Positions 4,751-25,296 of a stretch of DNA of 41,042 nt are shown in pieces (the first letter of the stretch is position 1; each line of letters begins with the position of its first letter). The position numbers and the translations under genes are program-made. The notes beneath the pieces were generated by a model, which did no database searches, was not told where the DNA came from, and saw only the letters and a program-made list of their open reading frames with translations. Source of the DNA: an uncultured Oligoflexia bacterium (GTDB taxonomy: Bacteria > Bdellovibrionota > Bacteriovoracia > Bacteriovoracales > Bacteriovoracaceae); the NCBI GenBank assembly GCA_937120495.1, contig CAKZJW010000109.1, positions 1 through 41,042 of the forward strand. Direction: 5' to 3'.

Positions 4751-5128
4751 TTAGTTAACTCCATATCTTTTTGCAAGAATACTTTTTAATCCCTCTTTTA
4801 AATCATCGATATCTTTTTCCAATATATCCCAAACCCTTTCCGATTCTAACCAAGTATAATCGTGATCAATTCTATTTCTTAATCCCTTAAGAGTTTTCCA
4901 CTTAACCACAGATGGAAATGTTTCAAGAATTCTATCTGGAGATTTTTCAATTTTTGATACATTTTCTCCAAGTTGAGATAACTGCATACAAATTGCATCA
5001 TAATCTTGTTCTTGAGCTGAGAAGATTTCAAAAGTAAGACCTTCTTTGTATTTTTCTATTTTCTCTATATGCTCTAACATTCGCTCTAGATATATTTGAG
5101 CCGACTTATATTCTTTCTTTGATTTCAA
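4751..5128 (-). CDS. hepT: HepT-like HEPN toxin (DUF86)
   Basis: A 125-residue all-helical protein with the HepT signature LRNRIDHDY: R84-x4-H89-x-Y91, the ribonuclease motif plus the tyrosine that MntA-type partners modify with AMP in characterised systems. Its length is typical. It overlaps the upstream HTH-MNT gene by 23 bases in another frame. The start is TTG at 5128, supported by a strong AGGAAG five bases upstream; no ATG occurs before residue 17. Expected role: RNA-cleaving toxin held in check by the neighbouring nucleotidyltransferase. The motif is intact, so the protein is probably active. Confidence 0.85.
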   Translation of the reverse strand: MKSKKEYKSAQIYLERMLEHIEKIEKYKEGLTFEIFSAQEQDYDAICMQLSQLGENVSKIEKSPDRILETFPSVVKWKTLKGLRNRIDHDYTWLESERVWDILEKDIDDLKEGLKSILAKRYGVN

Positions 5129-5663
5129 TTCTACTTCCTAAGATTTCTTCTCTAAATTCATTTATAAGATTCTCCTTGATTGTTAAATCAACTTCTACTC
5201 CCTTAAAAAGAGTCTCAAGAATCAACTTTATTTCTTCTTCTTCTTCAAACTTTAACACTCTACCAGTACTAATTAATACATCGATATCAGAACTTTCCGA
5301 TTCAGTTCCTTTAGCATAACTTCCAAATAGAAACATTTCCTTAATTTTATACTTTATCTTGAAAATAGGAAGAACTCTCTCAAGAACTTCAACAATATCT
5401 TCTTTTAATAAAACCTTAGTTTCTTTTTTAATTGGTTTAGTAACTATTTCCATTGGCGCTAACTCAAGGCCAAAGAAATTCAAAACATAATTTAATTTTT
5501 GAAAAGAAATATTTAAATCTCCCTGCTCTATCTTGCGAAGAGTTTTAAGGCCTATCCCAATATTCTTAGCAAACTCTACTTGTTTTAATCCAAGTTTTAA
5601 TCTTTCCTTTTTAACTACACTAGAAAGATATGGGAGATGAATGTTTCCGATTGCTATATCCAT
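5106..5663 (-). CDS. mntA: HTH-MntA fusion: XRE domain joined to minimal nucleotidyltransferase antitoxin
   Basis: Numbering is from ATG 5663. Residues 14-65 are an XRE-type helix-turn-helix (LGLKQVEFAKNIGIGLKTLR). Residues 105-185 are a minimal nucleotidyltransferase with FGSYAKGT (GSY at 114-116), the metal-binding SDIDVL (D126, D128) and a third Asp in EVDLTI (D159). In characterised MntA-HepT pairs this enzyme adds AMP to the toxin tyrosine. The fused HTH suggests it also autoregulates the operon; separate MntA proteins usually lack it. An upstream GTG at 5681 is in frame but lies before the predicted -10 box, so I prefer the ATG. Confidence 0.83.
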   Translation of the reverse strand: MDIAIGNIHLPYLSSVVKKERLKLGLKQVEFAKNIGIGLKTLRKIEQGDLNISFQKLNYVLNFFGLELAPMEIVTKPIKKETKVLLKEDIVEVLERVLPIFKIKYKIKEMFLFGSYAKGTESESSDIDVLISTGRVLKFEEEEEIKLILETLFKGVEVDLTIKENLINEFREEILGSRIEIKERI

Positions 5664-5671
5664 AGAGGTAT

Positions 5672-5699
5672 AGTATAACACACAAGCGCTATATCACAA
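5672..5699 (-). promoter_or_regulatory. Candidate sigma-70 promoter of the mntA-hepT operon
   Basis: Read on the minus strand, TTGTGA (5699-5694) and TATACT (5677-5672) are separated by 16 bases and match the -35 and -10 hexamers at 4 of 6 and 5 of 6 positions. The predicted transcription start falls two or three bases before ATG 5663, giving an almost leaderless message. This supports the ATG start. Visual match only. Confidence 0.4.
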
Positions 5700-6241: not shown

Positions 6242-6925
6242 TTAGCGATGATAACCATAGTCCTTTTGAGTATTAAACTTATATGAAAAGAGCTCTTTAT
6301 TATCTTTTAAAATTCTTAAAAAAACTTCTCCAGTCATCTCATTCGGATTCTTTAGCAGCTCATCTAAATAATATTCGACAATCAATCTATTTTGATCTTT
6401 TTTAACGATTAGAGTATCGTCAACAACTCTTTCAGTATATTTGACAAATTTTGATTCCCTACAAGGCTTTTCATCTGGATCTTTTGTTAAACAATTATAA
6501 TATTCAGCTTTAACCTTATATAATATTTTATACTCTCCCGCTTTTATCGCTATATTATCTATTATCATTCTAATCAGATTCTTTCTTGAAAAACTAAAGT
6601 ACTTCGTATTTTTTCGAACATAACAATAGTTCTTAGCTCTATTACTCAATTTATTAATAGACTCAATTTCTTTTTTCCTTTTTACATGCTTATCATATTC
6701 TTCCTCTAGTCTTTTTAACTCTATTGGGTCCGTAAACTTCTTATTTTTTTCTTCTCCAATAGCTTCTTTGAGATACTTAACATCTGTCATTGACTCTTCA
6801 CTAGTGAAATGCTGAAAAAGCTTCGCAATTTGAGGATCTCCTTTACACTTAGGAGCAAAATAAGCTGTTTGCGCTGATGCTCCAAAAGAAAACACTGCAA
6901 TAGATGTAATAATAAAATTCTTCAT
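6242..6925 (-). CDS. Exported protein of the CKGD family (paralogue 1)
   Basis: Function unknown. A signal peptide (MKNFIITSIAVFSFGASA) is followed within ten residues by CKGDPQIAKL, the CKGD-x-Q-x-A signature shared with the proteins at 6959 and 8790 and the fragment at 8580. The middle is a charged coiled-coil-like segment (EEEYDKHVKRKKEIESI). The C-terminal half alternates strands and holds two further cysteines, fitting a small extracytoplasmic beta domain. The start has AAGG upstream. It lies 33 bases downstream of the next paralogue and is likely in one operon with it. Confidence 0.7.
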   Translation of the reverse strand: MKNFIITSIAVFSFGASAQTAYFAPKCKGDPQIAKLFQHFTSEESMTDVKYLKEAIGEEKNKKFTDPIELKRLEEEYDKHVKRKKEIESINKLSNRAKNYCYVRKNTKYFSFSRKNLIRMIIDNIAIKAGEYKILYKVKAEYYNCLTKDPDEKPCRESKFVKYTERVVDDTLIVKKDQNRLIVEYYLDELLKNPNEMTGEVFLRILKDNKELFSYKFNTQKDYGYHR

Positions 6926-6958
6926 AAACGCCTTCTTTCAAAAATACGTTTTAGTTTT

Positions 6959-7681
6959 TTAGCAACAAGCATCCCAGCCTACAGTTTGATCAAATGAAAA
7001 CTTCTTATAAAATTTATTAGGACCTCGAATTTCAATCTCTAAAGTAACTCCATCATAAAGGTATAAATCATTTGTTAATGGTACAAGTAAATCAAACTTT
7101 AACGGGCTTCCATCTTTTTCTATTTTTTTAACAACTGAAATTGTCTTAGTTGTAATTATCGGTTTTTTTAAAGTATAGCTAATGCCAGAGCCACAATTTC
7201 CTTTTGCCTTTCGGTCTAAAAACTTTCCTACAATCACAGCATTGTATTTTCCTTTTTCAAGAGATTTTCCTCTGAGTAGAAGACTGATATCATTACCCAG
7301 TTGATAGTGGAACCCACCTTCTTCCCATAGCGTATTTTGTGGAATAACTTGACAGGCATCAGTTGCTTTACGAAACATCCTATTCAATTTTACTGCTTTA
7401 TAAAAAGGAGCTTTGCCTTTATCATACTTTTTACCTTCTCCCTCTAAACACTCACCTAGAGACGTATACTCAGATCTCCAATAATCATCCAAATTACAGT
7501 TTTTAATATACTCCCCTCTAGGCTGTATAGTAAAATAGCCCTCGCCTAGAACCTCTGACTTTTCCATCAATTTTGCTTTTTGAAGATCTCCCTTACATTT
7601 TAGTACCCAATGGTGATTAAGTTTACCACCGTAAGAAGACATGCTAAAAATAAACACAAAAAGAATTATTGCAACTCTCAA
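6959..7681 (-). CDS. Exported protein of the CKGD family (paralogue 2), TTG start
   Basis: A 240-residue protein with signal peptide VAIILFVFIFSMSSYGG and CKGDLQKAKL just after the cleavage region. It is Cys-rich (about eight after the signal, including a CC at the C terminus), suggesting disulfides in the periplasm or outside the cell. The C-terminal 100 residues look beta-rich (LEKGKYNAVIVGKF then LTNDLYLYDGVTLEIEIRG), a pattern shared loosely with the other paralogues. The start is TTG at 7681, supported by a strong GGGAGG six bases upstream; no suitable ATG exists. No known family is recognised. Confidence 0.7.
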   Translation of the reverse strand: MRVAIILFVFIFSMSSYGGKLNHHWVLKCKGDLQKAKLMEKSEVLGEGYFTIQPRGEYIKNCNLDDYWRSEYTSLGECLEGEGKKYDKGKAPFYKAVKLNRMFRKATDACQVIPQNTLWEEGGFHYQLGNDISLLLRGKSLEKGKYNAVIVGKFLDRKAKGNCGSGISYTLKKPIITTKTISVVKKIEKDGSPLKFDLLVPLTNDLYLYDGVTLEIEIRGPNKFYKKFSFDQTVGWDACC

Positions 7682-7704
7682 CTACGCCTCCCTCATATTT
7701 TTAT

Positions 7705-8583
7705 TTATTCAAAAACATGACAATTCAGCTTCTCTTTCCTTGATTTCTCTTTATCAATATCGTAAGAATAAAGGCTATCACATTCAAAGCCAGTCATACT
7801 GGGAACATAAACAAAAAATCGATTCTGTCCCTTCAAAAACTTTCCATAGAATATTTTTTTTCCTTTAAATCCGCCTGCCTTGTAAACAGGAATTCGATAC
7901 TCTTTATCTGAAAATTTGATTCTATGAGGCAGGTCATGCGTAGCAAGTATTGTTTCTACAGAAAAATACTGATGTTTAATTTTTGATATATTATATTTTT
8001 TTTTAACCTGCGCTCTCAAAACTTGCGATTCTACTCCGTCACTGTTGAATTCATATTTTGTTCCAACTAAAGCTAATCCTCTACCACTCACTTTATCTGG
8101 ATATGTTCCTTCTCCAGAATCTAGAGCTGTCTCTATATCTGCTTGTACGTCATAAAAATAGAACTCCCTAGTAGAGTATTTTAAATCTATTTTTTTTAAA
8201 ATTCGAACACCTGTCTTTTCTGTATTGAGAGTCAAAAAAGGCATCTTCGCCCCAGGAATCAGTCCAGTATCTTCATAATATTTTTTATTATTTCGAATAT
8301 ACTTATCAAACATTTCTTTTTCATATTTTTTATCATCTACCACAACCTTCACCTCGTAGAAGCCCGGATACTTTGACTCCTTATCATATTGCACATTTTT
8401 ACTATGAGTATGATGAACATCATCATACTCAGATTGAGTCTTTTTATTTAATAACTTTAAGTATTTATCACTGTTAGCATTAATTCGAATTCCCCCCTCA
8501 CCAACTCCTATAGCTCTAAATACCAAGGCTTCTTCTGAATGCGCTCTCCCAAAAACTAAAAGTGTAAACAAAACAAATATCAT
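7705..8583 (-). CDS. Exported protein of unknown function
   Basis: A 292-residue protein with a short signal peptide (MIFVLFTLLVFGRAHS) followed by a region rich in Lys, Tyr and Asp with no recognised motif. It has only two cysteines, both near the C terminus, and lacks the CKGD signature of its neighbours, so it is not an obvious paralogue. The ATG overlaps the TGA of the truncated paralogue at 8580 as ATGA, so translation may be coupled to the fragment. It lies 23 bases upstream of paralogue 2 and probably shares its transcript. Confidence 0.65.
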   Translation of the reverse strand: MIFVLFTLLVFGRAHSEEALVFRAIGVGEGGIRINANSDKYLKLLNKKTQSEYDDVHHTHSKNVQYDKESKYPGFYEVKVVVDDKKYEKEMFDKYIRNNKKYYEDTGLIPGAKMPFLTLNTEKTGVRILKKIDLKYSTREFYFYDVQADIETALDSGEGTYPDKVSGRGLALVGTKYEFNSDGVESQVLRAQVKKKYNISKIKHQYFSVETILATHDLPHRIKFSDKEYRIPVYKAGGFKGKKIFYGKFLKGQNRFFVYVPSMTGFECDSLYSYDIDKEKSRKEKLNCHVFE

Positions 8584-8759
8584 AATCTATATTCTCCTAG
8601 ACTCGTATCAAGATCAACACCTTCCATATATCCTAGATAGAGAACGTCTAAAAATAAAGCCTTTTGAAGATCCCCTTTACAACCCAAGCTCCAAGTTAAC
8701 TCATAGGAAGCAAGAGCCAAAGTTGGACAAAGGAGAACACTTAAAACTACTTTCTTCAC
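8580..8759 (-). pseudogene. Truncated duplicate of the CKGD-family gene at 8790
   Basis: Read from GTG 8759, this frame gives a 59-residue peptide: a signal peptide (VVLSVLLCPTLALAS), then YELTWSLGCKGDLQKALFLD and the LGYMEGVDLD stretch, and then a stop. The DNA at about 8597-8720 is nearly identical to 9317-9436, the 5' part of the intact neighbour, so it is a recent partial duplication. The copy loses the remaining 165 or so residues. The signal-peptide half differs more than the mature part. It could still be secreted as a short peptide, but I treat it as a broken copy. Confidence 0.7.
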
Positions 8760-8789
8760 AAAACACCATCATCTTTCAAGACAGTATAC

Positions 8790-9467
8790 CTAGTAAACAT
8801 CACAAAGCTGCCAGACATCAAGTTTTTTCTTTATAGTAGATTTTATTCCCGCTGGGTCAGTAATATCAACTTGAATCAGTCCTCCATTATGAACAGGCTT
8901 CGACCAAAACTCAGACATAGGTAGCTCTACTAGTTTACGAACCTGATCTCTAGTCTTTAATTCAAAGCGAATTTCTTTATTAAAGTTTAAAGTATTTACT
9001 TTATTATCAAGACAACTCCGGCCACAAACAGCACACTTATAAACATCAACTTGTGCTTTTACAACCGCAGTATACCACCCTAAGCTCAATTTCGTTTTGT
9101 CTTCTACGATTACTGAAAGGTACTTTCTCTTATCTCTGAAAGGATTGTATCCCTTTTTTCTACCAACGGAGTTCGCTGATGAAAAAGTACGGCATTGATT
9201 CTTCGTATTTTTTCTTAGATCAAGAGCCTTTTTAGTTTGTTGATAATCATCATAATACATCTTCGCTGTTTCTTCAGAGCCATTATTAACTTTAACAAGT
9301 TCCTTATAGCTCATATCAAGATCAACATCTTCCATATACCCTAGATAGAGAACGTCTAAAAACAAAGCCTTTTGAAGATCCCCTTTACAACCCAAGCTCC
9401 AAGTTAGCTTATAGGAAGCCAAACATATAGTGGGTAGTAGAAAAAGAATGAAAAATAATTTAATCAT
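8790..9467 (-). CDS. Exported protein of the CKGD family (paralogue 3)
   Basis: A 225-residue protein with signal peptide MIKLFFILFLLPTICLAS, then CKGDLQKALF. It contains a CAVCGRSC cluster in the middle (possible metal site or disulfides), a short acidic/coiled stretch, and a C-terminal strand-rich part (IQVDITDPAG near the end) resembling a receptor-like beta sandwich. It is the parent or sister of the truncated copy at 8580. It lies 31 bases downstream of the YcaO gene stop, so read-through from the biosynthetic operon is possible. Function unknown. Confidence 0.7.
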   Translation of the reverse strand: MIKLFFILFLLPTICLASYKLTWSLGCKGDLQKALFLDVLYLGYMEDVDLDMSYKELVKVNNGSEETAKMYYDDYQQTKKALDLRKNTKNQCRTFSSANSVGRKKGYNPFRDKRKYLSVIVEDKTKLSLGWYTAVVKAQVDVYKCAVCGRSCLDNKVNTLNFNKEIRFELKTRDQVRKLVELPMSEFWSKPVHNGGLIQVDITDPAGIKSTIKKKLDVWQLCDVY

Positions 9468-9498: not shown

Positions 9499-10467
9499 CT
9501 AAGCAAATGGATGTGGAAAAAACTTAAGTTTTTCTAAATTACTTAACTCTGAAAGATTAAAACGGTTTATGTTAATTTTTTCTTCCGTTGTACTTCCCCA
9601 GAATATCTGTTGAACATCTTTGGATTCAGCCTGAGAAATAAATAAAGGAAAGGTAGTTTTTAACATTTCCGGAACATCTAAAGATTTAACTAACACATCA
9701 GACTTCCCCTCATTAAGACTCTCTTCAGCTTCGGATACATACATTTCTTTGTATTTTTTGGCGTAATCTAGTGATAAAGCAAGTTGATGGTGGTGAAAAA
9801 GTTTCAACTCTCCTCTCTGCTCTAGTTCAAAGAACTCTGAGAATGAAATTGAATGAATCAGATCATGTCCCAATGTACTCATTATTTCTCTCAAGGACTT
9901 TTCCTTTGCAATCTCGTACGACTTATCGGAACCTAATCCAACAATCATCCCAAATGGTGATTCGTAATCCTCCCCCCAAATTATTGATTGAACGACATTG
10001 AATCCGTAGTTATTCTTCAGCAAAAAACTAGAGATTTTTGTATTTGGATAGGCTTTAAGTATGCATTGCTCAAGCTCTGATTCTCTTGTATCGGCCTCTG
10101 GTAAGTTTTGAGTTAAGTAGTAGTATAGATAAGTGTCTCTCTCTACGAGCTCTTTCAATGCATTTTCATCAGCTTTATCTTTTTTGAAGTGTGCTGCAAG
10201 TCCATTTGTAGACTTTAAGTTATAATCATAAAATGCAATTCGCTCAAAAAGCTCCATAGCAGCAATCACAATAGATTGAATTTTATTTTCAGCGATACCC
10301 GTTGATTCAAGAGCTCCACCTTCAAAATTGTACTCCAGGTTCGTAACATGAAATTCACGTCCTAAACTAGGGCTCCAGTTATTATATATGATACGAATAT
10401 CTCGCTGACTCTTTAATTGTTCTAAAAAATAAAGAATTTTTATCACATCAGCGTTAACTTTCTCCAT
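9499..10467 (-). CDS. YcaO-domain protein (candidate azoline-forming cyclodehydratase)
   Basis: A 322-residue protein with the ordered YcaO ATP-binding blocks: ESTGIAENK (54-62), AAMELFERI (69-77, with E72 and E75), KSTNGLAAH (85-93, family consensus S-[ST]-N-G-[LM]-A) and ALKELVERD (103-111). These are the nucleotide and metal ligands that let YcaO enzymes phosphorylate a backbone amide during heterocycle formation. The protein ends FFPHPFA, reminiscent of the proline-rich C termini of azoline-forming members. It is somewhat short and has no fused E1/ThiF-like domain. It overlaps the upstream oxygenase gene by 14 bases and is the last gene of the five-gene operon. The likely substrate is the Cys-rich tail of the protein at 13296. 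Confidence 0.85.
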   Translation of the reverse strand: MEKVNADVIKILYFLEQLKSQRDIRIIYNNWSPSLGREFHVTNLEYNFEGGALESTGIAENKIQSIVIAAMELFERIAFYDYNLKSTNGLAAHFKKDKADENALKELVERDTYLYYYLTQNLPEADTRESELEQCILKAYPNTKISSFLLKNNYGFNVVQSIIWGEDYESPFGMIVGLGSDKSYEIAKEKSLREIMSTLGHDLIHSISFSEFFELEQRGELKLFHHHQLALSLDYAKKYKEMYVSEAEESLNEGKSDVLVKSLDVPEMLKTTFPLFISQAESKDVQQIFWGSTTEEKININRFNLSELSNLEKLKFFPHPFA

Positions 10468-11173
10468 TAATTAACCTCAACCTTCGAGCTTTACTAAAGT
10501 TATTAAATTCATTTTCCAAATTACAGTTTGCAAGAACCCTCTTTAAGCTAGCTGTTGTTGTGTCAAAATTGAACTCGCTTCCGATGGACATTTTATCAAA
10601 TAGAAACGTAAAAAACTCAAAATGAGTATTTGTGTCAAATGACATTGTTAAGTGAAAAGAATAATCTGAATCAGAGCAAGTGACATTGTGCTCGAGCTTC
10701 TCTGGTACAAAAAGAAAGTCACCTTTTTTGACTTCAATCTCTTCTCTATGACCATCATCATAATAGAAAGTCCATTTTTTAGAACCTTCAACCTGAAAAA
10801 CAATGAGTGGAAAAAAATCACTGTGTAACCCTATACCCGTATCGTTTTTTTCTCCACGAGACAAATAAGCATTAGTCCTCACACCAAGATTAGAAGAAAT
10901 CAACCACTTCACGGCCATCTTCTTCAGCACTGGTTCATAAATCTGAACATCAGCCAAGCGAAGAAAAAAACTTTTAGAAAAGGAAGCTGCTAAGACATCT
11001 TCACCAGTCAAATCGTTTCTCTCGAACACTCCATTAACCAATCTTAAAAAGTTTTCTTTTTGTTGAGAAAAGAATTGTTTTGCATCAAAACGATTAAAGA
11101 ATTCCTCTTCTCCATCCGCCTCAAATATAAATTTTTTTATCAAGCATGCTTTTTTCGAATTAAAAATTTCCAT
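10454..11173 (-). CDS. JmjC/cupin_4-like Fe(II)/2-oxoglutarate oxygenase
   Basis: A 239-residue protein. The double-stranded beta-helix core shows HSD (H117, D119), a QVEGSKKWTFYY strand with a candidate 2-oxoglutarate-binding Lys (132/133), KKGDFLFVP, and the distal iron ligand in LEHNV (H162). This is the HxD...H triad of JmjC and ribosomal-oxygenase-like enzymes, all present. Such enzymes hydroxylate amino-acid side chains. Within this operon (34-base overlap upstream, 14 downstream) it probably hydroxylates the peptide product, but the substrate is inferred. Confidence 0.8.
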   Translation of the reverse strand: MEIFNSKKACLIKKFIFEADGEEEFFNRFDAKQFFSQQKENFLRLVNGVFERNDLTGEDVLAASFSKSFFLRLADVQIYEPVLKKMAVKWLISSNLGVRTNAYLSRGEKNDTGIGLHSDFFPLIVFQVEGSKKWTFYYDDGHREEIEVKKGDFLFVPEKLEHNVTCSDSDYSFHLTMSFDTNTHFEFFTFLFDKMSIGSEFNFDTTTASLKRVLANCNLENEFNNFSKARRLRLINGES

Positions 11174-12744
11174 CCAATTAAACTCCCGTTTACAAAAAAT
11201 AAATATATCAATCCAAGAGCAAAAGAGCCTAGAAGACCATAACGATGGAAGACAGTTCTATCTTCGCGCTTTTTGTTTATTGATATATCAAGATGATCAA
11301 CCTCACCTTGATTAATTTTTTTTATGATTTTTCCTTCTTCGATATAGGCTGTAATCCCCGTTCTTGATACCTTTAACACGGGGACACCAAACTCTAAAGA
11401 CCTGAACCTGGCAAGGTAGAGATGCAGAGCGAGCTCACTTGTAGATTGAAAAAAACTTTCATTTGCAATATTAACGATAAAGTCTATCTTATTTTCCTTC
11501 ATTGAAGAGGACTGCATAAAATGTGGAAATAAAATCTCCCAACAAATAAAAAGACCGTATGAGTACCCTGAGATCGTTTTAAAGTGATTCTTCGATTCCT
11601 CAACTCTACCTGTAAGAAATCGTTTATGACTAGGTTGCCCCTCATTTAAAAGATCAAGTACTCGAAAACTTGGAAAATCTTCAGCAAGTGGAACCAGAAG
11701 TTTTTTATAAGTACTATTACTACTCGTCTCTCTAGCATTTATAATATGAGCAACTCCCGATCGATACGAGCGTCCCTCAATATCCTCACGCAATAAAGAG
11801 CCCACAATCGTTTCTTGTGGTTTTTTGAAAAAAGATTTTAACTTTTCTGGATAATTTATCTCTTTACCCAAAAGTGAAAAATCATCATATGGATAAAAAG
11901 TTTCACCAAGAATATGAAAATCAATATTTTCAAGACCACTTGAAAATGAATCTACTATCTCAGAGTAAGTTTGATTCTTAAAAATCCAATTCTTCTCATT
12001 ATCATCTCCATGCGGGAAGTAATTGATAACTCCAGTTTGAGACATTCTAATCTTTAGAGGCTTAAAACTTTTATTGCTTTTACTTGGTTCAACAGTTTTT
12101 AGAACAAATAGAGAAATTATTAATACAGAGAAAGCACAAAGTATCGTCTTCATATTCTCTTTCGTAACGACTAAAATAAAGAAGTAATAGAGTATAAAGC
12201 TATAAAAATATATTCCTCCATATTCAACAGCTCCAAGTAACCATGGGACATCAATAAAAACCCCTCCTATATTAGTTGGAAAAAGCTGAGTAAAAATCAA
12301 TTCACTTCCTGCTAATATTACTGGAATCACAATTTGTTGCAAAGCTTTCGATTTAATCCTACTCAACAAGATAATGGCCAAAGGAATAAGTAAAAGGTGA
12401 AAGGTTTGATAAATAAAAAGTAAACCATCAAATAGGAAATTTAATTGAGGGTGGAAAATATTAAAATTTCTCAATCCAACATGAATCCAGCTAAAAACAC
12501 CAAAGTAGAAAGTTAAACAAAAGATAAAATTTATAAAAACGATCTCTTTGGATGAACTTATTCTAAAAAGAAACGAAAGTGTAAACCAACCTACGATAGA
12601 TAGATAAAATGAAGGGTCAATATTATATGTATTTGGATAGCCTAGAGAGAAAGCGAATCCACCGACTATAGAAAGCAGAGTCTTAAAGTATTTCGAATGT
12701 TTCTCGATAAAGCTCTTCAACAGTCTTTCCTCTATAAAACTCAC
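11140..12744 (-). CDS. Apolipoprotein N-acyltransferase-like (Lnt family) enzyme
   Basis: 534 residues, close to the family length. About six to eight membrane segments fill residues 20-215, followed by a nitrilase-type domain. The catalytic triad is visible: E281 (LGETFYP), K347/K348 (TYKKLLVPLAEDFP) and C401 (LFICWEILFP), plus NIANESFF at 425-432. Lnt transfers an acyl chain from phospholipid to the amino group of the lipid-modified N-terminal cysteine. The usual ICYE is ICWE here. The GTG start overlaps the acyltransferase gene by 62 bases; a TTG at 12720 preceded by AGAGGA is an alternative start. It may be the cell's Lnt, but its position suggests acylation of the cluster product. Confidence 0.82.
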   Translation of the reverse strand: MSFIEERLLKSFIEKHSKYFKTLLSIVGGFAFSLGYPNTYNIDPSFYLSIVGWFTLSFLFRISSSKEIVFINFIFCLTFYFGVFSWIHVGLRNFNIFHPQLNFLFDGLLFIYQTFHLLLIPLAIILLSRIKSKALQQIVIPVILAGSELIFTQLFPTNIGGVFIDVPWLLGAVEYGGIYFYSFILYYFFILVVTKENMKTILCAFSVLIISLFVLKTVEPSKSNKSFKPLKIRMSQTGVINYFPHGDDNEKNWIFKNQTYSEIVDSFSSGLENIDFHILGETFYPYDDFSLLGKEINYPEKLKSFFKKPQETIVGSLLREDIEGRSYRSGVAHIINARETSSNSTYKKLLVPLAEDFPSFRVLDLLNEGQPSHKRFLTGRVEESKNHFKTISGYSYGLFICWEILFPHFMQSSSMKENKIDFIVNIANESFFQSTSELALHLYLARFRSLEFGVPVLKVSRTGITAYIEEGKIIKKINQGEVDHLDISINKKREDRTVFHRYGLLGSFALGLIYLFFVNGSLIGWKFLIRKKHA

Positions 12745-13351
12745 GCTGTATTAACTTAACCTTTACCTGCACTCTAGAGCTTCCTCGGTTAAGAATCTTT
12801 TCGCTACCTTTGATGTAGCATAGTAGAAGGTCTTCTTCTGTATTTTCAATAAGTTTATCAATCCCTTTTTTAAAGGGCAACAACCCTTCAGCTGAACGAT
12901 TACGGGTTCCTTCTGGAAATAACATACAATGCAAACCCAAAGACAAGTGTTTTAGATTATTTTTCAAACAATTCTTATCGTTATTACTATAATAGAGGTC
13001 CCCTCTTAGTCTCAAAGCTAATGCATATAAGAAATATCCAATTCCAGCCTTATGCATTCCCACACACGAAATATCATTTTGAGATTTATACAAGACGGAC
13101 CTAACAATAAAGAAGTCATACCAACTCCTATGGTTTGTAATTATTAAATAGTTCTTATCCGTTGATATCGAGTCGCCAGAGATTTCAATTTTCACACCAT
13201 ATAACAGATGAAGAATGTAACTTTTAAGAGAATAAAAAGGAAAAATACAAAAGGTTAATGTCAAAAATACGAGTTTAGAGCTAAAAAAAAGTCTCTTAAC
13301 AGCCTGAACTATAACACCCACAACACCCCGTCGCATAAGCAGCCAGTTCAT
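12683..13351 (-). CDS. PlsC-like acyltransferase
   Basis: A 222-residue membrane-anchored enzyme of the 1-acylglycerol-3-phosphate acyltransferase family. Key motifs are NHRSWYD (H74-x4-D79, catalytic) and FPEGTR (145-150, acceptor binding), after an N-terminal hydrophobic segment. ATG 13351 has AGGGG six bases upstream, and the gene therefore starts inside the precursor gene: the codons for the precursor's Cys-rich tail are also the first PlsC codons in another frame. ATG 13336 is an alternative. It could serve ordinary phospholipid synthesis, but the operon position points to acylation in the pathway of the neighbouring enzymes. Confidence 0.82.
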   Translation of the reverse strand: MNWLLMRRGVVGVIVQAVKRLFFSSKLVFLTLTFCIFPFYSLKSYILHLLYGVKIEISGDSISTDKNYLIITNHRSWYDFFIVRSVLYKSQNDISCVGMHKAGIGYFLYALALRLRGDLYYSNNDKNCLKNNLKHLSLGLHCMLFPEGTRNRSAEGLLPFKKGIDKLIENTEEDLLLCYIKGSEKILNRGSSRVQVKVKLIQREFYRGKTVEELYRETFEIL

Positions 13352-13763
13352 CTTCGACCCCTAACAAGGCATCAAGGCTCACTATAGACATCTCTCCCAA
13401 AGTTGACTCAAGCTTAAAAAGATCACTGTCATCAGCTTCGATAACTAACTTTTCCTGTGACGTTGAAGAGTTACCTCTAGTAAGTACACCTCTATCAACT
13501 AATTCGCTTAGGCTTTGTTTAATTTTGCTAGCGGATTCATTATCAATCCCAAAGAACTGAACTGAATCCTCAAATGAGTATTGATACTTTAGAGTCAGTA
13601 CCATCACCTTCCAGTAAGTTCCTGTAAAGTTGAACAAATTTTGTCCATCCTCAATACCAACAAGTACACCTTTGGACTCACTTATTTGTCCAGATTCATT
13701 ATCCCTAGAGAGATCAATTTCGACATAACCGTTGCTTAGAAAAAACATATTTGATAGGCTCAT
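13296..13763 (-). CDS. RRE-like domain fused to a Cys-rich RiPP precursor tail
   Basis: 155 residues. Residues 32-97 resemble a PqqD/RRE winged helix: strands around GVLVGIEDG and NLFNFTG, helix YWKVMVLTLKY, then SASKIKQSLSELVDRGVL. A polar linker (98-112) leads to an amphipathic leader-like segment (LESTLGEMSIVSLDALLGV, 118-136). The end is EDELAAYATGCCGCYSSGC; the last 11 residues hold four Cys, two Ser, one Thr and three Gly, the composition of azole-forming core peptides such as SagA. AYA before TGCC could be a cleavage site. It is first in an operon with YcaO and modifying enzymes. No other precursor candidate is visible. The fusion is my inference from pattern. Confidence 0.7.
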   Translation of the reverse strand: MSLSNMFFLSNGYVEIDLSRDNESGQISESKGVLVGIEDGQNLFNFTGTYWKVMVLTLKYQYSFEDSVQFFGIDNESASKIKQSLSELVDRGVLTRGNSSTSQEKLVIEADDSDLFKLESTLGEMSIVSLDALLGVEDELAAYATGCCGCYSSGC

Positions 13764-13796
13764 ATTACACTTCTTGTTATTTGGAGAATCAATATT

Positions 13797-14225
13797 ATGT
13801 TTAAAATTATAGCATTATTAGCAGTTATATTCAATACTAATACCTCTTACAGCGCCAGTACAAAACAACCTAAGCTTCCAGCAGATGTTTTCAAAGAAAT
13901 TGTAAAAATTCAAAGACAGGCCCTACCTGCAGCGAGCGCTAAAGAGCTAAAATCAGACTTTAACTCTTTAGAGGAAAAAGCTTTCAAGCAATTTCTTAAG
14001 AAAACTTTAGTCTCAGATATACTTAAGTCTTACTTAATAACATTTATGAAGGAAAGAGATATTGATAAGAAAGAGTTAAGCTTTAAAAACATCTATCCAA
14101 ATGCTCTACGTACAGTTCAAAAAGGTATCACGAAGAAAACAAAACTTGATGCGATAAAAAAAGGATACGTTGGTCCATTATTTTTCAACGTCATCATCTT
14201 AACATTAAAAGGCAAAGATAGTTGA
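13797..14225 (+). CDS. Small exported protein, first gene of the divergent operon
   Basis: 142 residues: a signal peptide (MFKIIALLAVIFNTNTSYSA) followed by a Lys-rich, predominantly helical mature part with no cysteine and no recognised motif. GGAG lies ten bases before the ATG. The start codon is only 33 bases from the divergent precursor gene. Its stop overlaps the glycosyltransferase start, tying it to the locus. It could be a carrier, immunity or periplasmic binding protein for the product; nothing in the sequence decides this. Confidence 0.65.
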   Translation: MFKIIALLAVIFNTNTSYSASTKQPKLPADVFKEIVKIQRQALPAASAKELKSDFNSLEEKAFKQFLKKTLVSDILKSYLITFMKERDIDKKELSFKNIYPNALRTVQKGITKKTKLDAIKKGYVGPLFFNVIILTLKGKDS

Positions 14226-15385
14226 GTGCTATCTTTTTTAAAAGTAGTAATAAATCACCAATTAAGAGCGTTGATTCTATTATAGAGAAGCTATCACTTG
14301 ATATAGATAAAAATGAAAAGTTAGAACTTGTAATTGAATCGGAGTCCGATATAGAAAGGCACCTATCACAACTGAGCTCTACCGAAGCTAAAAAGATAAT
14401 ATTTCTTTTTAGTAACAATCCTCTTACCGAAAATATTATTAAAGCAATTCCACAAAATCTAAGTAAGAGCATCATATTAATTTGCTTTGGTGAGTCATAT
14501 TTTTTAGTAAATAAACTTAACAAGATTAAAAATAAAAACTTACATCTTTTTACGTTTTCTAAGTCATATAGAAACCTGTTAGATCATCTAACAGTATATC
14601 CCGTCTCCTCTCTACCACCAATTATAAAGTCAGATCAATTCTTTCATAACCAAGATTCAACAAAGCAGCTGAGAGAGTCGCTCAAACTAAGTCCTACAGA
14701 TATCGTTTTCCTATACTCTGGAAGGCTTTCTATGCAAAAGAATTCACTGCTTTTGATAAACATGTTTAAAAAGATTTCTAATATAAATCCATCTATCAAA
14801 TTACTTATCATCGGACCAATCGACTCATTAGCTGAAAGTCATAAAGGAACGATTCAAAATATTGAATATGCTGAGGAAGTTAGAAAGAAATTAATCGATA
14901 CAAAAAATAACAATATTATTTATTTGGAAAAAATACCTAGAACTCTTCTAAATAAATATTACAATTGTTCTGATGCGTTCATAAGTTTAAGTACACATCA
15001 CGGTGAAATTCTCGGACTTGCTCCTATAGAAGCCAGCTTAACAGGACTTCCATGCTTTTTAACTAACTGGGGTGGTTATAAAGATTATAAAGACTATCAT
15101 TGCGCATCCTCCAGTTACTATTCCATAAAGCAAGATGCACCAATCCCTTTGAACCTCTTAGTAAAGGATATATTATCGTTCAAGAAAAGAAATCATTTGC
15201 AAAGAAAACAAGACTCCGAATCAATACACAATAAGCTCTCCCAAATAAATGTTTTAAAATCTATTTATGATAAAATCAACTATCCAGGCGAGATAATGGA
15301 ACTCTGTAAGAACGATATCAATTTAAAATCTGAAACTTTGGATCGAGAAGAGTATAAAGCTCTTTTTAAATATTTTTATGAATAA
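14222..15385 (+). CDS. GT4-like glycosyltransferase
   Basis: 387 residues with the C-terminal half of a GT-B fold. FLYSGRLSMQKN (about 158-169) begins the nucleotide-sugar-binding domain, LLIIGP follows, and HGEILGLAPIEA contains the E-x7-E motif that contacts the donor sugar. LPCFLTNWGG is the following strand-loop. The N-terminal acceptor half is divergent. The start is TTG at 14222, overlapping the previous stop as TTGA; I see no better ATG. It likely attaches a sugar to the product or to a membrane lipid. The alpha/beta hydrolase gene overlaps its end by 8 bases. Confidence 0.78.
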   Translation: MSAIFFKSSNKSPIKSVDSIIEKLSLDIDKNEKLELVIESESDIERHLSQLSSTEAKKIIFLFSNNPLTENIIKAIPQNLSKSIILICFGESYFLVNKLNKIKNKNLHLFTFSKSYRNLLDHLTVYPVSSLPPIIKSDQFFHNQDSTKQLRESLKLSPTDIVFLYSGRLSMQKNSLLLINMFKKISNINPSIKLLIIGPIDSLAESHKGTIQNIEYAEEVRKKLIDTKNNNIIYLEKIPRTLLNKYYNCSDAFISLSTHHGEILGLAPIEASLTGLPCFLTNWGGYKDYKDYHCASSSYYSIKQDAPIPLNLLVKDILSFKKRNHLQRKQDSESIHNKLSQINVLKSIYDKINYPGEIMELCKNDINLKSETLDREEYKALFKYFYE

Positions 15386-16319
15386 ACTAATAACATTATT
15401 AACTGTATCTTTTTTTCTTTTAGGCAATCACTCTTTTATACAAACAGAGAAAGGGACTAAGATCCAAATTCAAAAGAATGGATCAAAGGGTGAACTTTTA
15501 ATTTTTATTCACGGCGGTCCCGGAATGCCCGGTTATATGGATACATTAGCTAATCAATTTTTAACAACAAATACTACTGTCACATATTATCAAAGAGACA
15601 AGACAAACTCTCCATCTGTTGGCCCCTTTACGGTACAAAAACATGTTGATGATCTTTTATACATAATTGAGTATTACTCCAAAAGTTACAAATCGATCTC
15701 TATAATTGCTCATAGCTGGGGAACAAACTTAGTCCTGTCATCACTTGCGAGGAGAAAACTTCGTAATATCAAACAAATAGTTTTGCTCTCGCCTGCTCCG
15801 GTGAAGTTTAATTTCTTTAAGGATTTTTATGCTTCTATATATAAGAAAGCCTCTAAGAATAGAAAAAGTACGATTCGTAAATATATTGAAACGTGGAAAA
15901 ATCCTGACTTCAAATCGACAAGAATTGAGTATCAATATCATCAGCAGTGGTTTAAAGAAATCTTACCCTATTATTTTTATTCAAAATCACAAGAGAATAA
16001 AAGAAAAATACTCTCTGAGATTCAATCTGATTATAAAAACTGGGAAGGCAGTAAAGAAGCAGTAAAAAGTTTTTACTCCAATTCAACTTTAAGAGAGCAA
16101 ATTTACAAAAAAAATAAAACTCTTAAAAACTTATACTTACTTTATGGTACAGAAGATCCTTTTTATTCAAGGGATAATATGAACTGGTTCAAAGAAACTT
16201 TTAACTCAATTAATATTTTTTCTTTTACGGATACTGGCCACTGTCCCTGGCTCGAAGACTCTAATTCCAACTTTCTAAAAAAATTAAAAAAGTTAGTTAA
16301 AGGGAAATTAAATGATTGA
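15378..16319 (+). CDS. Alpha/beta hydrolase, prolyl-aminopeptidase-like, exported
   Basis: 313 residues with an N-terminal signal-like segment (LITLLTVSFFLLGNHS), an oxyanion-hole motif HGGPG near residue 46, a nucleophile elbow in AHSWGT, a catalytic-acid candidate in YGTEDPF and a histidine in TGHCPW. This is the S33 family arrangement (proline iminopeptidases and relatives). In the locus it could trim the leader from the matured peptide outside the cytoplasm or hydrolyse an ester or amide intermediate; the role is inferred. It overlaps both neighbours by 8 bases. Confidence 0.78.
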   Translation: MNKLITLLTVSFFLLGNHSFIQTEKGTKIQIQKNGSKGELLIFIHGGPGMPGYMDTLANQFLTTNTTVTYYQRDKTNSPSVGPFTVQKHVDDLLYIIEYYSKSYKSISIIAHSWGTNLVLSSLARRKLRNIKQIVLLSPAPVKFNFFKDFYASIYKKASKNRKSTIRKYIETWKNPDFKSTRIEYQYHQQWFKEILPYYFYSKSQENKRKILSEIQSDYKNWEGSKEAVKSFYSNSTLREQIYKKNKTLKNLYLLYGTEDPFYSRDNMNWFKETFNSINIFSFTDTGHCPWLEDSNSNFLKKLKKLVKGKLND

Positions 16320-17064
16320 ACAGTTTAAATTACTTATTATTGTAAGTTTTCTGTTCTCTATTGCTGAGTTTGTAAAAACGAGAAAACTCTCTCTAATTTC
16401 GTATCAAGATTGTTTTTATCTCATCGCTCAAATTATTCTTATTGTCCCTTGTATCTATTACTTTAAGTTATTCCTTATTACATCCAGCTCTTTTATCGGT
16501 ATCCATCCGTCTAGTATCATGGAAAAACAATCTCTTCTCTCGCAAGTTTTTCTAATGTTATTTTTTGGTGATTTAGTTAGCTATATTTGTCATCGTTTAT
16601 TCCATACACGCTATTTATGGCTTTTTCATGAAGTCCATCACACTACTAGAAAAATGAATTGGGCAAAGGCACAAGTATCACACCCTATTGACTCTATTCT
16701 TACATTTGGAACAATTTACTTTTTTGTCCATATGTTCTCTTTTTCCTTAGAGTCTTTAGCAGTTGTACAGCTCATTTCTTTAATTTACGGTTTTTTATCT
16801 CACAGTAAAATTCATTTTCGCTTTGGTTTTTTCGACTATGTATTTATTTCACCTACATCTCACCATCTACACCATTCATTATTAAAAAAGAATGAATCAT
16901 GTCATAAGAATTTTTCTTCCTTTTTTTCAATATGGGATATCTTATTCGGGACATTTCAAAAGCCAGATTCAAAACCATTAACATATGGGACAAATTCAAG
17001 AGAGTTAAAGACGTTAAAGCAACAATTGCTTTCTCCTCTAACGAAATTTTTAAGGAAAAATTAA
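16312..17064 (+). CDS. Fatty acid hydroxylase superfamily (sterol-desaturase-like) membrane enzyme
   Basis: 250 residues with four or five hydrophobic segments and the complete histidine clusters of the di-iron hydroxylase family: HRLFH (H-x3-H), HEVHH (H-x2-HH), an intervening HP/H pair, and HHLHH (H-x2-HH). Members hydroxylate or desaturate alkyl chains in the membrane. It is the last gene of the plus-strand operon, and its stop overlaps the convergent SagB-like gene by 15 bases. Beside two acyltransferases it suggests a hydroxylated acyl chain in the product or its membrane target. Confidence 0.82.
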   Translation: MIEQFKLLIIVSFLFSIAEFVKTRKLSLISYQDCFYLIAQIILIVPCIYYFKLFLITSSSFIGIHPSSIMEKQSLLSQVFLMLFFGDLVSYICHRLFHTRYLWLFHEVHHTTRKMNWAKAQVSHPIDSILTFGTIYFFVHMFSFSLESLAVVQLISLIYGFLSHSKIHFRFGFFDYVFISPTSHHLHHSLLKKNESCHKNFSSFFSIWDILFGTFQKPDSKPLTYGTNSRELKTLKQQLLSPLTKFLRKN

Positions 17065-18255
17065 ATCTAACATCAAATGTTGACTATTCTTTAAGTACTT
17101 TTCAAGCAAAGAGCTTTCAAAATTATGCCCATTTAAATAAGATGAAACTCCATATGTACTTGCAGTTAAATGGAGCGTATTCATCAAAACTCCAGCATTC
17201 AACAAGGTTAGTTTTAATGCTATATTTTGATACTTTCTCTCTATCGATTCCTGATTGCTTACTCCATACATGATCATTTGAGGGATAGCCTGTAAAAAAG
17301 GACTTGTAATCAGTGGCGCTTCCAGTAGTTTTGAATGATCTGAAGAGCTAATATTAATCTTCTCAAGATTCAAGTTATTACGATTTAACTTATATAGTCC
17401 CGAGTCCATTCCGCGAACATTATTTATAGCAATATAAAGTTCTATTTCATAAAGTCCACCTGCAGAGGGGTAGCTTAATGAGTCAGATTCATAAGTTCGA
17501 AAGACAGAGTCAAGAATTTCATTTATATCTTTTATACACAATTGACTCAACGGTTGATATCTTGACTTCCTATTCGCAAAGATACGATCAAGTTCTGTTG
17601 AAGGAATCCCCTCCCTTTGTCGAATATTGATTAAGTCTTCTTTACTATTGCAATACGTATAGTTTTTTTGAACTAGTAAGTTTTTTTCTAAATACGGTTT
17701 TAAATTCTTCATTTTTGATAAGAAAAGTTGATCAGCGAAATTAGAATAAGCTCTAGCCTCAACATTATCAAAATGAAAAGATTTCAATAAATTTTGAATA
17801 AGAGAGTCTTCTACATTTGGCCATTTTTTAAAAACAATCTCTGCGCTAGAAGATAGAGAATCAAATGAATAACCCGCTGTACTTTTAGTGATTATATATT
17901 TGGATTCATCTAAAGAGGTACTGTTTTGAAGAGATGTAGCTTTAGAAATATTGTAAACTGAGATGTTTTTAGGAATTATTTCGACTTCATATTCAGTTTC
18001 ATACATTTCAAGTTGTATGTATTTCATAAATATTTGAATTAAAATTTTAATTTCAACAACTTCCTCAGTATTGTCAGCGAGACTAAATAATGATGCTAAC
18101 GGTACATAGTCATTTGTTAAGGACTGAATGAGTTTTATAATTTTTTCTTCATTTATTGTTGAAAAACGATGTGGGATTTTTAAAATCCCAAAATAGAACA
18201 CTCCTTCTTTATAGATAATATTTTGTCTTAATTTATATAGTATCTTGAGGTCCAT
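17050..18255 (-). CDS. SagB-type nitroreductase-family dehydrogenase
   Basis: 401 residues. The C-terminal 180 residues are a SagB-like FMN nitroreductase domain: NRKSRYQPLS (228-237), SYPSAGGLYEIELYIAI (261-277, the family's P-S-A-G-x-x-Y), GLYKLN (286-291) and a late LLNAGVLMNTLHLTA helix. SagB-type enzymes oxidise azolines to azoles after YcaO action. Residues 1-100 are an extra domain resembling a winged helix (PHRFSTINEEKIIKLIQSL then VPLASLF) and might bind leader peptide. It is transcribed separately, convergent with the plus operon. Its presence with YcaO strongly supports a linear azole peptide pathway. Confidence 0.85.
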   Translation of the reverse strand: MDLKILYKLRQNIIYKEGVFYFGILKIPHRFSTINEEKIIKLIQSLTNDYVPLASLFSLADNTEEVVEIKILIQIFMKYIQLEMYETEYEVEIIPKNISVYNISKATSLQNSTSLDESKYIITKSTAGYSFDSLSSSAEIVFKKWPNVEDSLIQNLLKSFHFDNVEARAYSNFADQLFLSKMKNLKPYLEKNLLVQKNYTYCNSKEDLINIRQREGIPSTELDRIFANRKSRYQPLSQLCIKDINEILDSVFRTYESDSLSYPSAGGLYEIELYIAINNVRGMDSGLYKLNRNNLNLEKINISSSDHSKLLEAPLITSPFLQAIPQMIMYGVSNQESIERKYQNIALKLTLLNAGVLMNTLHLTASTYGVSSYLNGHNFESSLLEKYLKNSQHLMLDLIFP

Positions 18256-20927: not shown

Positions 20928-22073
20928 TTAACCTACTTCCAAACATTCACCATCGTCGTGAATAGGAAGAGCGATTTTAAATGTAGTATTTTGAGCCTCT
21001 TCAATAAGTTCAATTTCACCACCATGAGAGTGGATTATTTTTTTGGAAATACTCATACCTAAACCTGTTCCATTTCCTTTTGTTTTAGTCGTGAAAAATG
21101 GTTCAAAGATTTTTTCTTTTAAAGACTTCGTATCGATACTTCCGCTATCGGAGATATAAATTTCGATCGTATCATTTACAACTGTAGTTGATAGTCGAAC
21201 CCACTTCTCATCATTATCTTTAACCGCGTCATGAGCATTATTTAGAAAGTTTAAAATGACTTGAGATATCTGAACATCATTACAAAGAATATCTACATCC
21301 TCGATATTATTTACGACAAGATCTATTCCTCCAGACTTTAATCTTTCAGAGCATAAATTAAAAGCATCATTTAAAATATTCTCGAGGCTTGTAACTTCTT
21401 TAGGATCGTTGTCTTCTTTACGTGAATAGCCGCGCAAACTTTTTACAATTTTTGCTATACGATTCGTTACATTTTCAATTTTTTCACTGTATTCCAAAAG
21501 CTTCTCAATATCTTCTTCTTTATTCGCTGATCTTTTAATTTGAGAGATATATCCTAGAATTATAGTAAGTGGATTATTAATCTCATGAGCAATACCTCCG
21601 GCCATCTCTCCTAGAGTTGCCATTTTAAGAGACTCTGCTTGTTGCATACGTATTTCTTCGAGCTCTAAGAGCATATTGTTTCTTTCTAGAGCATACATAA
21701 TAGATCGAGATAAAGTATAAGGAGTTAATTCTTTTTTTAGTAAATAATCTTGAGAACCTTTTTGAATTGCTTCAACTGCAAGCTCTTCACTTTCATAGCC
21801 TGTTAAAACAATTATTGGTAATTGATTTCCAAATTCTTCAATGATTAAAGACAAACTGGTTAGTTGATCAGAGTCAGGTAATGAAAGATCTAATAACAAG
21901 ATATCAAAAGATTCTTTTCTTAAGTATTCGAACATTTCTTTTTGAGATGCTGCTTCTTTATAAGATACATTTAATATATTCGAATTCTTGTTTAATTTTT
22001 TTATATTACGGCCAAAACTTAATTGGTCCTCAATACTATCTTCAACAAAAAGAGCTTTAATATTTTTTTTCAT
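20928..22073 (-). CDS. Hybrid REC-histidine kinase
   Basis: 381 residues, with order reversed relative to classical hybrids: an N-terminal receiver (phospho-Asp D62 in LLLDLSLPD, TGY and a late Lys-Lys) followed by a short coil, HisKA with H163 in GGIAHEINNPLTI, and HATPase with NFLNNAHDAV, DSGSID and GTGLGMSIS. It has no membrane segment, so it is cytosolic and probably driven by phosphorylation of its own receiver. All catalytic residues are present. A near-perfect 18-base palindrome lies upstream at 22113. The gene is convergent with the lipoprotein gene, 3 bases apart. Confidence 0.9.
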   Translation of the reverse strand: MKKNIKALFVEDSIEDQLSFGRNIKKLNKNSNILNVSYKEAASQKEMFEYLRKESFDILLLDLSLPDSDQLTSLSLIIEEFGNQLPIIVLTGYESEELAVEAIQKGSQDYLLKKELTPYTLSRSIMYALERNNMLLELEEIRMQQAESLKMATLGEMAGGIAHEINNPLTIILGYISQIKRSANKEEDIEKLLEYSEKIENVTNRIAKIVKSLRGYSRKEDNDPKEVTSLENILNDAFNLCSERLKSGGIDLVVNNIEDVDILCNDVQISQVILNFLNNAHDAVKDNDEKWVRLSTTVVNDTIEIYISDSGSIDTKSLKEKIFEPFFTTKTKGNGTGLGMSISKKIIHSHGGEIELIEEAQNTTFKIALPIHDDGECLEVG

Positions 22074-22112
22074 TTCCCCACCACTTTAACTTCTACCTAC
22101 AAGACTATATCG

Positions 22113-22130
22113 GATCAGAATATTCTAATC
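22113..22130. promoter_or_regulatory. Near-perfect palindrome, candidate operator
   Basis: GATCAGAATATTCTAATC is an 18-base palindrome with a single mismatched pair, about 40 bases upstream of the REC-kinase start in a 178-base intergenic stretch. It could be a dimeric regulator site. The rest of 22074-22251 is AT-rich; it also holds a weak TGACA/TGTCA hairpin near 22227-22244 that may end the upstream operon. Confidence 0.35.
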
Positions 22131-22251
22131 TTAATTATAGCTTAAGTTTCCAACTTACCAAATTAAATATGAAAGGTCCTTAATCAACCCTTAATATTGT
22201 TATAACAATTTTCTAATAAACAACAAAGTGACACTTTTTTCTGTCATTTTC

Positions 22252-25282: not shown

Positions 25283-25296
25283 TTAATATCCTCAAA

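What the first reader, a model, noticed from the sequence alone, without database searches (positions are those of the whole stretch)
9499..18255. Candidate undescribed azole-type RiPP locus with acyl- and sugar-transfer enzymes
YcaO (9499) and a SagB-type dehydrogenase (17050) bracket a precursor-like Cys-rich protein, a JmjC oxygenase, PlsC-like and Lnt-like acyltransferases, a GT4 glycosyltransferase, an S33 hydrolase and a fatty-acid-hydroxylase-family enzyme. YcaO plus SagB is the established azoline-to-azole pair. Combining them with this lipid and sugar tailoring set is not a cluster type I know. Directly seen: motifs and overlaps. Inferred: that all ten genes act in one pathway, possibly making a lipidated azole peptide.
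Basis: partly seen in the sequence, partly recalled or inferred. Interest (0 to 1): 0.9.

Follow-up and report, generated by a model that had tools for sequence, protein, structure and literature searches.

The report
Azole-peptide cluster with lipid and sugar enzymes
A relative of predatory bacteria carries a tightly packed ten-gene cluster that is predicted to turn the cysteine-rich tail of a small protein into a ring-bearing peptide and that likely attaches fat and sugar to it; some related genomes carry a similar core with a changing set of lipid, sugar and oxygen-adding enzymes.

Summary
In detail: ten closely packed genes at 9499-18255, eight in the families named (YcaO, JmjC_2, Lnt-like, PlsC-like, GT4, alpha/beta hydrolase, fatty-acid hydroxylase, SagB). 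All four cysteines of the 155-aa candidate precursor lie in its last nine residues. The Lnt-like gene is a second, divergent copy and six other PlsC-type genes exist. Relatives split the claim. Two same-family genomes carry precursor, YcaO, SagB, GT4 and hydroxylase together; their precursor tails vary at four positions, only among Cys, Ser and Thr, as expected of a cyclodehydratase substrate, and the leader model resembles RRE peptide-binding domains. Two more have YcaO, PqqD-type RRE, SagB, GT4 and an oxygenase; one has YcaO, a second Lnt, hydroxylase and GT2 without SagB. PlsC and the hydrolase recurred nowhere examined. An azole-type RiPP pathway is well supported, sugar/lipid tailoring plausible, acylation of the peptide inferred. 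Against: no E1-like partner among the ten genes; the window precursor matches neither RRE profiles nor the relatives' leaders significantly; the YcaO tree is unresolved; without the window, Lnt beside YcaO was seen once. A new variant of the YcaO-SagB RiPP kind, not a classical LAP.

The parts
13296..13763 (-). candidate precursor, 155 aa; long leader ending LDALLGVEDELAAY and C-terminal tail ATGCCGCYSSGC (all 4 Cys, residues 147, 148, 150, 155, in its last 9 residues)
   Evidence: no Pfam or NCBIfam family; only itself among 5.8 billion proteins
12683..13351 (-). PlsC-like acyltransferase, HRSWYD and PEGT motifs; start codon uncertain (as listed it overlaps the precursor's tail by 56 bp)
   Evidence: PF01553 52.1 bits; motifs and overlap; one of 7 such matches in the genome
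11140..12744 (-). second, divergent Lnt-like N-acyltransferase, Glu-Lys-Cys residues aligned with the housekeeping-type copy
   Evidence: LNT_N and CN_hydrolase over cut-off; TIGR00546 115 bits, below its 132.9 cut-off; other copy on contig C132 at 222.7 bits; alignment
10454..11173 (-). JmjC_2 family, predicted Fe(II)/2-oxoglutarate oxygenase, HSD...H motif
   Evidence: PF08007 38.2 bits; motif; relative in L034
9499..10467 (-). stand-alone YcaO, predicted cyclodehydratase; ELFER, ELVERD and C-terminal HPF
   Evidence: PF02624 41.6 bits; motifs; Glu/Arg/Asp of these motifs and His319 invariant across 6 YcaOs
13797..14225 (+). small protein with a signal-peptide-like start (by eye), unknown role, first gene of the + block
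14222..15385 (+). GT4 glycosyltransferase, E-x7-E motif, TTG start
   Evidence: PF00534 65 bits; motif
15378..16319 (+). alpha/beta hydrolase of the proline-iminopeptidase type, AHSWG; signal-peptide-like start (by eye); possible leader-trimming or release enzyme (guess)
   Evidence: PF00561 30.1 bits, TIGR01250 33.8 bits, below cut-off
16312..17064 (+). fatty-acid-hydroxylase family enzyme, only NCBIfam match OlsE (below cut-off); four His motifs
   Evidence: PF04116 86.6 bits; NF052566 78.1 bits against 475; motifs
17050..18255 (-). SagB-type flavin dehydrogenase, predicted azoline-to-azole oxidase
   Evidence: TIGR03605 81.2 bits over cut-off 78.4; the only match to this family in the genome at E<=0.001

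Best explanation
This is a predicted azole-type RiPP pathway in which YcaO and SagB likely convert Cys/Ser/Thr of the tail ATGCCGCYSSGC into azoles and co-encoded enzymes likely hydroxylate, glycosylate and acylate the product. Shown: the gene families, their motifs, a second Lnt copy, and the presence of YcaO together with SagB, GT4, hydroxylase, JmjC or Lnt in other genomes of the phylum. Inferred: (1) the long leader carries the precursor to YcaO, in place of the E1-like partner of classical clusters; (2) YcaO closes azolines and SagB oxidises them (net -20 Da each, at most 7 rings); (3) the JmjC enzyme hydroxylates a residue; (4) the leader is removed, perhaps by the alpha/beta hydrolase, freeing an N-terminal amine that the Lnt-like enzyme acylates from phospholipid; (5) PlsC, GT4 and the OlsE-like hydroxylase add or modify acyl and sugar groups, giving a membrane-anchored azole lipopeptide. 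Step 2 is about 0.7 likely, 1 and 3 about 0.5, 4-5 together about 0.3 (lowered from 0.35 after the Lnt count was redone without the window).
For: Families and motifs. SagB-type genes are uncommon: 22 of 129 family genomes at E<=0.001, 7 over the cut-off. Relatives L024 and L031, whose contigs are titled Halobacteriovoraceae, carry precursor, YcaO, GT4, SagB, an unknown 259-269-aa gene and FA_hydroxylase together. In their precursors and 7 database homologues (9 rows, some near-copies) the 17-residue tail has 13 invariant columns and 4 variable ones, all 4 varying only among C, S and T; in the leader 108 of 121 columns vary (gaps counted) and 1 varies only among C/S/T. L034: YcaO, PqqD, SagB, JmjC_2, GT4. 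L078: YcaO, PqqD, SagB, GT4, Asp/Arg hydroxylase. L117: YcaO, weak PqqD, second Lnt-like gene, FA_hydroxylase, GT2, FA desaturase; its genome's other Lnt match, which scores better against the window's Lnt, is on another contig. Rough post hoc expectations: 0.49 FA_hydroxylases near 42 YcaO loci against 4 seen (3 against 0.48 without the window, P 0.013). GT4 near 5 of 13 YcaO+SagB loci against 1 of 38 YcaO loci without SagB (4 of 12 without the window, Fisher P 0.009).
Against: No E1-like or ocin-ThiF partner among the ten genes. The window precursor has no homologue; against the relatives' profile 102 of 2000 of its shuffles and 17 of 748 other ORFs score as high, against an RRE profile 133 of 2000 shuffles and 33 of 760 ORFs, its own ORF among these; its single-sequence model is unusable (pLDDT 34.8). 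PlsC and the hydrolase recur in no locus searched. YcaO+SagB loci without lipid genes exist. L117 has no SagB and no evident precursor. Without the window, Lnt near YcaO is seen once against 0.16 expected (P 0.15), and L117's genome has 10 FA_hydroxylase matches, so one beside its YcaO is less surprising. FA_hydroxylases are common (112 of 129 genomes). The YcaO tree does not group the loci. No exporter or known RiPP leader peptidase was matched among the ten genes. YcaO scores far below the SagD-family cut-off (34.9 against 219.25).
Confidence: 0.5

Rival explanations
1. An azole RiPP without lipidation: precursor, YcaO, SagB and JmjC make and hydroxylate the peptide, while Lnt-like, PlsC-like, GT4 and OlsE-like enzymes build or remodel a membrane glycolipid or aminolipid that serves the same process, for example self-protection of the envelope.
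For: PlsC, FA_hydroxylase/OlsE and many GT4 enzymes act on lipids (family knowledge; family matches); the + strand block is separately transcribed; FA_hydroxylases are common in the family; YcaO+SagB loci without lipid genes exist.
Against: The Lnt- and PlsC-like genes lie inside the precursor-YcaO block with overlapping ends; Lnt chemistry is N-acylation of a peptide amine (family knowledge); YcaO, Lnt-like and FA_hydroxylase genes occur together in one other genus.
Confidence: 0.32
2. The YcaO makes another amide-activation product (thioamide, amidine or macroamidine) rather than azoles, and SagB acts as a different flavin dehydrogenase.
For: Stand-alone YcaO with no E1-like partner among the ten genes; scores to both the SagD and the McrA-thioamidation families are far below their cut-offs.
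Against: SagB over its curated cut-off; tail with 7 of 12 residues Cys/Ser/Thr; C/S/T-only exchange in the relatives' tails.
Confidence: 0.15
3. A chance neighbourhood: a small YcaO operon and an unrelated lipid/sugar operon that happen to adjoin.
For: Three transcription blocks; PlsC and hydrolase not seen elsewhere; overlaps alone do not prove common function in compact genomes; the Lnt association outside the window is one locus.
Against: GT4 and FA_hydroxylase lie beside YcaO+SagB in two other genera (L024, L031), JmjC in a third (L034), Lnt and FA_hydroxylase beside YcaO in a fourth (L117); rough expectations.
Confidence: 0.12

Closest known systems
[quoted passage not shown]
   Same: YcaO plus SagB-type flavin dehydrogenase beside a precursor with a Cys/Ser/Thr-rich C-terminal tail
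   Different: no E1-like or ocin-ThiF partner found among the ten genes; leader of about 140 residues; Lnt, PlsC, GT4, FA_hydroxylase and JmjC enzymes in the cluster
NHLP-leader YcaO pathways (MprE/MprC/MprD; PMC12455567, abstract and the first of two parts of the text read)
   Same: long leader delivering a short tail to YcaO and a flavin oxidase
   Different: leader of the relatives models as an RRE-like winged helix, not nitrile-hydratase-like; window leader fold unproven; per that paper MprC has an RRE domain of its own
DAG-RiPPs (PMC12636315, passages read)
   Same: an Lnt-type acyl transfer is part of the route to a lipidated RiPP
   Different: those go through the general Lgt/LspA/Lnt route by a lipobox on the precursor, and the ones shown are made with MNIO enzymes; here an Lnt-like gene sits in the cluster and the precursor has no Cys before residue 147, hence no N-terminal lipobox
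Selidamides, lipolanthines, goadvionins (PMC9505594, passages read)
   Same: lipidated RiPPs
   Different: GNAT-type acylation or polyketide hybrids; no such family was matched among the ten genes

Membership tests
YcaO-SagB azole RiPP (broad sense) | YcaO with the conserved acidic motifs | tested here: met
   PF02624 over cut-off; ELFER/ELVERD, their Glu/Arg/Asp invariant across 6 YcaOs; their role in ATP binding is recalled
YcaO-SagB azole RiPP (broad sense) | SagB-family dehydrogenase in the cluster | tested here: met
   TIGR03605 81.2 bits over 78.4
YcaO-SagB azole RiPP (broad sense) | adjacent precursor with Cys/Ser/Thr-rich C-terminal core | tested here: met
   13296-13763, tail ATGCCGCYSSGC, 7 of 12 residues C/S/T; that it is the substrate is inferred
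YcaO-SagB azole RiPP (broad sense) | azol(in)e rings in the product | not testable with these tools
   needs mass spectrometry
Classical LAP (SagBCD type) | E1-like or ocin-ThiF partner (TIGR03882, TIGR03693; names from PMC7470986, passages) encoded with YcaO | tested here: not met
   no such NCBIfam match at E<=0.05 in the ten genes; the rest of the genome was not searched for it
Classical LAP (SagBCD type) | SagD-family YcaO (TIGR03604) | tested here: not met
   34.9 bits, cut-off 219.25
DAG-RiPP | lipobox Cys behind an N-terminal signal sequence in the precursor | tested here: not met
   no Cys before residue 147 of 155
Apolipoprotein N-acyltransferase (Lnt) | LNT_N and CN_hydrolase domains with the Glu-Lys-Cys triad | tested here: met
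   alignment with the copy on C132; the triad is recalled
Apolipoprotein N-acyltransferase (Lnt) | NCBI equivalog score (TIGR00546, 132.9 bits) | tested here: not met
   115 bits for the window gene, 222.7 for the copy on contig C132
RRE-leader precursor (as modelled in L031) | winged-helix RRE fold in the leader | tested here: inconclusive

The most novel reading that the evidence does not exclude
A new class of membrane-anchored azole glycolipopeptides: the precursor carries its own RRE-like recognition domain as leader, so that a stand-alone YcaO needs no E1-like partner, and a dedicated Lnt-like enzyme acylates the azole peptide's freed N-terminus from phospholipid, with GT4 and hydroxylase finishing the head group.
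Probability: 0.2. Interest if true: 0.85.

Novelty: new variant of a known kind. Interest (0 to 1): 0.6.

Why it matters
Lipidated RiPPs were called very rare in PMC9505594 (2022; passages read), and the routes I met in the papers read are GNAT acylation, polyketide hybrids and the general lipoprotein pathway. A cluster with its own Lnt-like gene next to a YcaO-SagB azole system would, if the acylation is real, be another enzymatic route to lipidated azole peptides. The precursors of the two nearest clusters, with an RRE-like leader joined to a nearly invariant, C/S/T-exchanging tail, offer a simple, testable substrate and suggest that recognition domain and substrate can be one polypeptide.

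Tried and rejected

Literature, an open-access library only: no paper with 4 of RiPP, YcaO, SagB, lipidated, acyltransferase; lipopeptide+RiPP+fatty acyl+azole+biosynthetic gene cluster+YcaO: 3 papers, listing seen only; precursor peptide+RRE+fused+YcaO+leader: 12 listed, RRE domain/precursor/fusion terms: 11 listed, of which I read passages of PMC7470986, sections and passages of PMC12710340 and part of PMC12455567; selidamide/lipolanthine/goadvionin: 5 listed, passages of one read; YcaO+JmjC+RiPP: one paper; apolipoprotein N-acyltransferase+RiPP+precursor peptide: one (passages); Bdellovibrio+RiPP+YcaO: one, whose single hit is the phylum name in what looks like a figure legend; predatory-bacteria terms: 33, 12 listed, none read for this except as below; Halobacteriovorax+biosynthetic gene cluster: ten listed, of which PMC8067016 (passages) reports RiPP clusters in Bdellovibrionota only in general. 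I saw no RRE-precursor fusion described in these passages; papers only listed may hold one.

Considered and rejected: Lnt/PlsC as misplaced housekeeping genes; an island foreign by composition, no marked GC shift.
Full report
Observation. Expected motifs of the seven enzymes tested are present. The genes form a divergent pair of blocks plus a convergent SagB gene, with overlaps or one short gap. ARAGORN finds no tRNA and Rfam gathering thresholds no match in the window. The candidate precursor (155 aa) has all four Cys in its last nine residues; its tail is ATGCCGCYSSGC.

Housekeeping or dedicated. The genome (estimated 90.8% complete) holds another Lnt at 222.7 bits (cut-off 132.9) on contig C132; the window's gene scores 115 but keeps the Glu-Lys-Cys residues. 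Seven PlsC-type matches are present, the window's the weakest. The SagB gene is the only SagB-type match in the genome at E<=0.001. There are two other YcaO matches: one in a 732-aa frame on C73, like the many frames of about 730 aa that head the family's list, and a compact one on C48 in a different gene set.

Relatives. The family can be named from contigs: L065 and L066, equal in contig length to the contigs of G010 and G036 used here, are titled Halobacteriovoraceae. Of 129 family genomes, 22 have a SagB-type match at E<=0.001 and 7 are over the cut-off; in the phylum sample 47 and 14 of 368. I fetched contexts of YcaO and SagB genes and scored them with profiles of the cluster proteins. 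L024 and L031 carry precursor, YcaO, GT4, SagB, an unknown 259-269-aa gene and FA_hydroxylase together; L034 carries PqqD, YcaO, JmjC_2, SagB and GT4; L078, from another family of the phylum, carries YcaO, PqqD, SagB, GT4 and an Asp/Arg hydroxylase. L117, from genus g24, carries YcaO, a weak PqqD (below cut-off), a GT2, FA_hydroxylase, a second Lnt-like gene and a fatty-acid desaturase, but no SagB. PlsC and the alpha/beta hydrolase recurred in none of the loci searched, nor 13797-14225 in those. Eight of the 13 YcaO+SagB loci had none of FA_hydroxylase, Lnt, PlsC, JmjC or a counted GT4.

Strength of the association. With 385 FA_hydroxylase matches in 428 Mb of 129 genomes, 0.49 are expected within about 6 kb of 42 compact-YcaO loci and 4 were seen (Poisson P 0.0016); without the window 3 against 0.48 (P 0.013). 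For Lnt it is 2 against 0.16 with the window (P 0.012) and 1 against 0.16 without it (P 0.15), so Lnt alone is not established. GT4 lies near 5 of 13 YcaO+SagB loci against 1 of 38 YcaO loci without SagB (Fisher P 0.003), 4 of 12 without the window (P 0.009). These figures are post hoc and approximate, and the GT4 profile was trained on four of the five counted loci. L117's genome has 10 FA_hydroxylase matches, the most of any.

Mechanism. YcaO and flavin oxidase are an established pair for azoline formation and oxidation (established knowledge; PMC12455567 describes -18 and -20 Da for MprC/MprD). The absence of an E1-like partner in the ten genes suggests that the leader itself engages YcaO; this is inference, and in that paper the YcaO MprC has its own RRE. 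A JmjC PF08007 enzyme in such a setting has a published hint: PMC12710340, section 6, reports that the closest bacterial homologues of RRE-fused eukaryotic JmjC proteins occur in RiPP-like contexts. Lnt enzymes acylate an N-terminal amine from phospholipid (family knowledge), so the most direct reading of an Lnt-like gene inside the precursor block is N-acylation of the leader-free peptide; PMC12636315 shows RiPPs acylated through the lipoprotein route, though by way of a precursor lipobox that this precursor lacks. Which substrates PlsC, GT4 and the hydroxylase act on is inference. No exporter was matched among the ten genes, which fits a membrane-bound product but proves nothing.

Verdict. 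The cluster is real, and most likely an azole-type RiPP pathway of a variant without an E1-like partner beside it. Sugar, lipid and oxygenase tailoring is supported by GT4, FA_hydroxylase and JmjC in other YcaO loci, and by one further Lnt, but as a changing kit, not as a fixed ten-gene cluster. Lipidation of the peptide itself is untested. On rechecking, the Lnt counts were redone and the odds of steps 4-5, the novel reading and the interest were lowered slightly.

Noticed in passing
L021 1537-5869 (own genome, contig C48); L051, L077, L079: A second, recurrent YcaO system: small secreted-like protein with a Cys-bearing tail, OppA-like substrate-binding protein, YcaO (with SagB in L051, L077, L079) and a histidine kinase with receiver; roles read by eye, no family search run; possibly a modified-peptide sensing system.
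   Followed up: partly
L032 8681-9373: Beside YcaO, SagB and PqqD lies a 230-aa protein with a Gly/Ser-rich stretch joined to a Peptidase_S74 chaperone domain, a candidate precursor with an unusual partner domain; a relative lies about 3 kb from the YcaO of L023.
   Followed up: no
L050 8267-13495: YcaO and a SagB-like protein with a metallo-beta-lactamase-fold protein, an unassigned 308-aa protein and a transporter-like protein (by eye): a different YcaO neighbourhood.
   Followed up: no
L055 1253-2401 and L053: A YcaO-type cluster apparently split over two contigs of G165, with a JmjC_2 protein whose C-terminal part looks RRE-like by eye.
   Followed up: no
L117 5217-12911: YcaO locus with a second Lnt, FA_hydroxylase, GT2 and fatty-acid desaturase but no SagB and no obvious precursor.
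   Followed up: partly
window 6242-9467: Four consecutive secreted-like proteins of 225-292 aa without Pfam match next to YcaO; three share a CKGD stretch near the N-terminus.
   Followed up: no
window 4751-5681: HepT-like ribonuclease and HTH-nucleotidyltransferase pair, resembling a HepT/MntA toxin-antitoxin pair (the pair name is recalled).
   Followed up: no
window 20928-30651: Run of sensor kinases and response regulators (Pfam for 24830-30651; 20928-24837 by eye).
   Followed up: no
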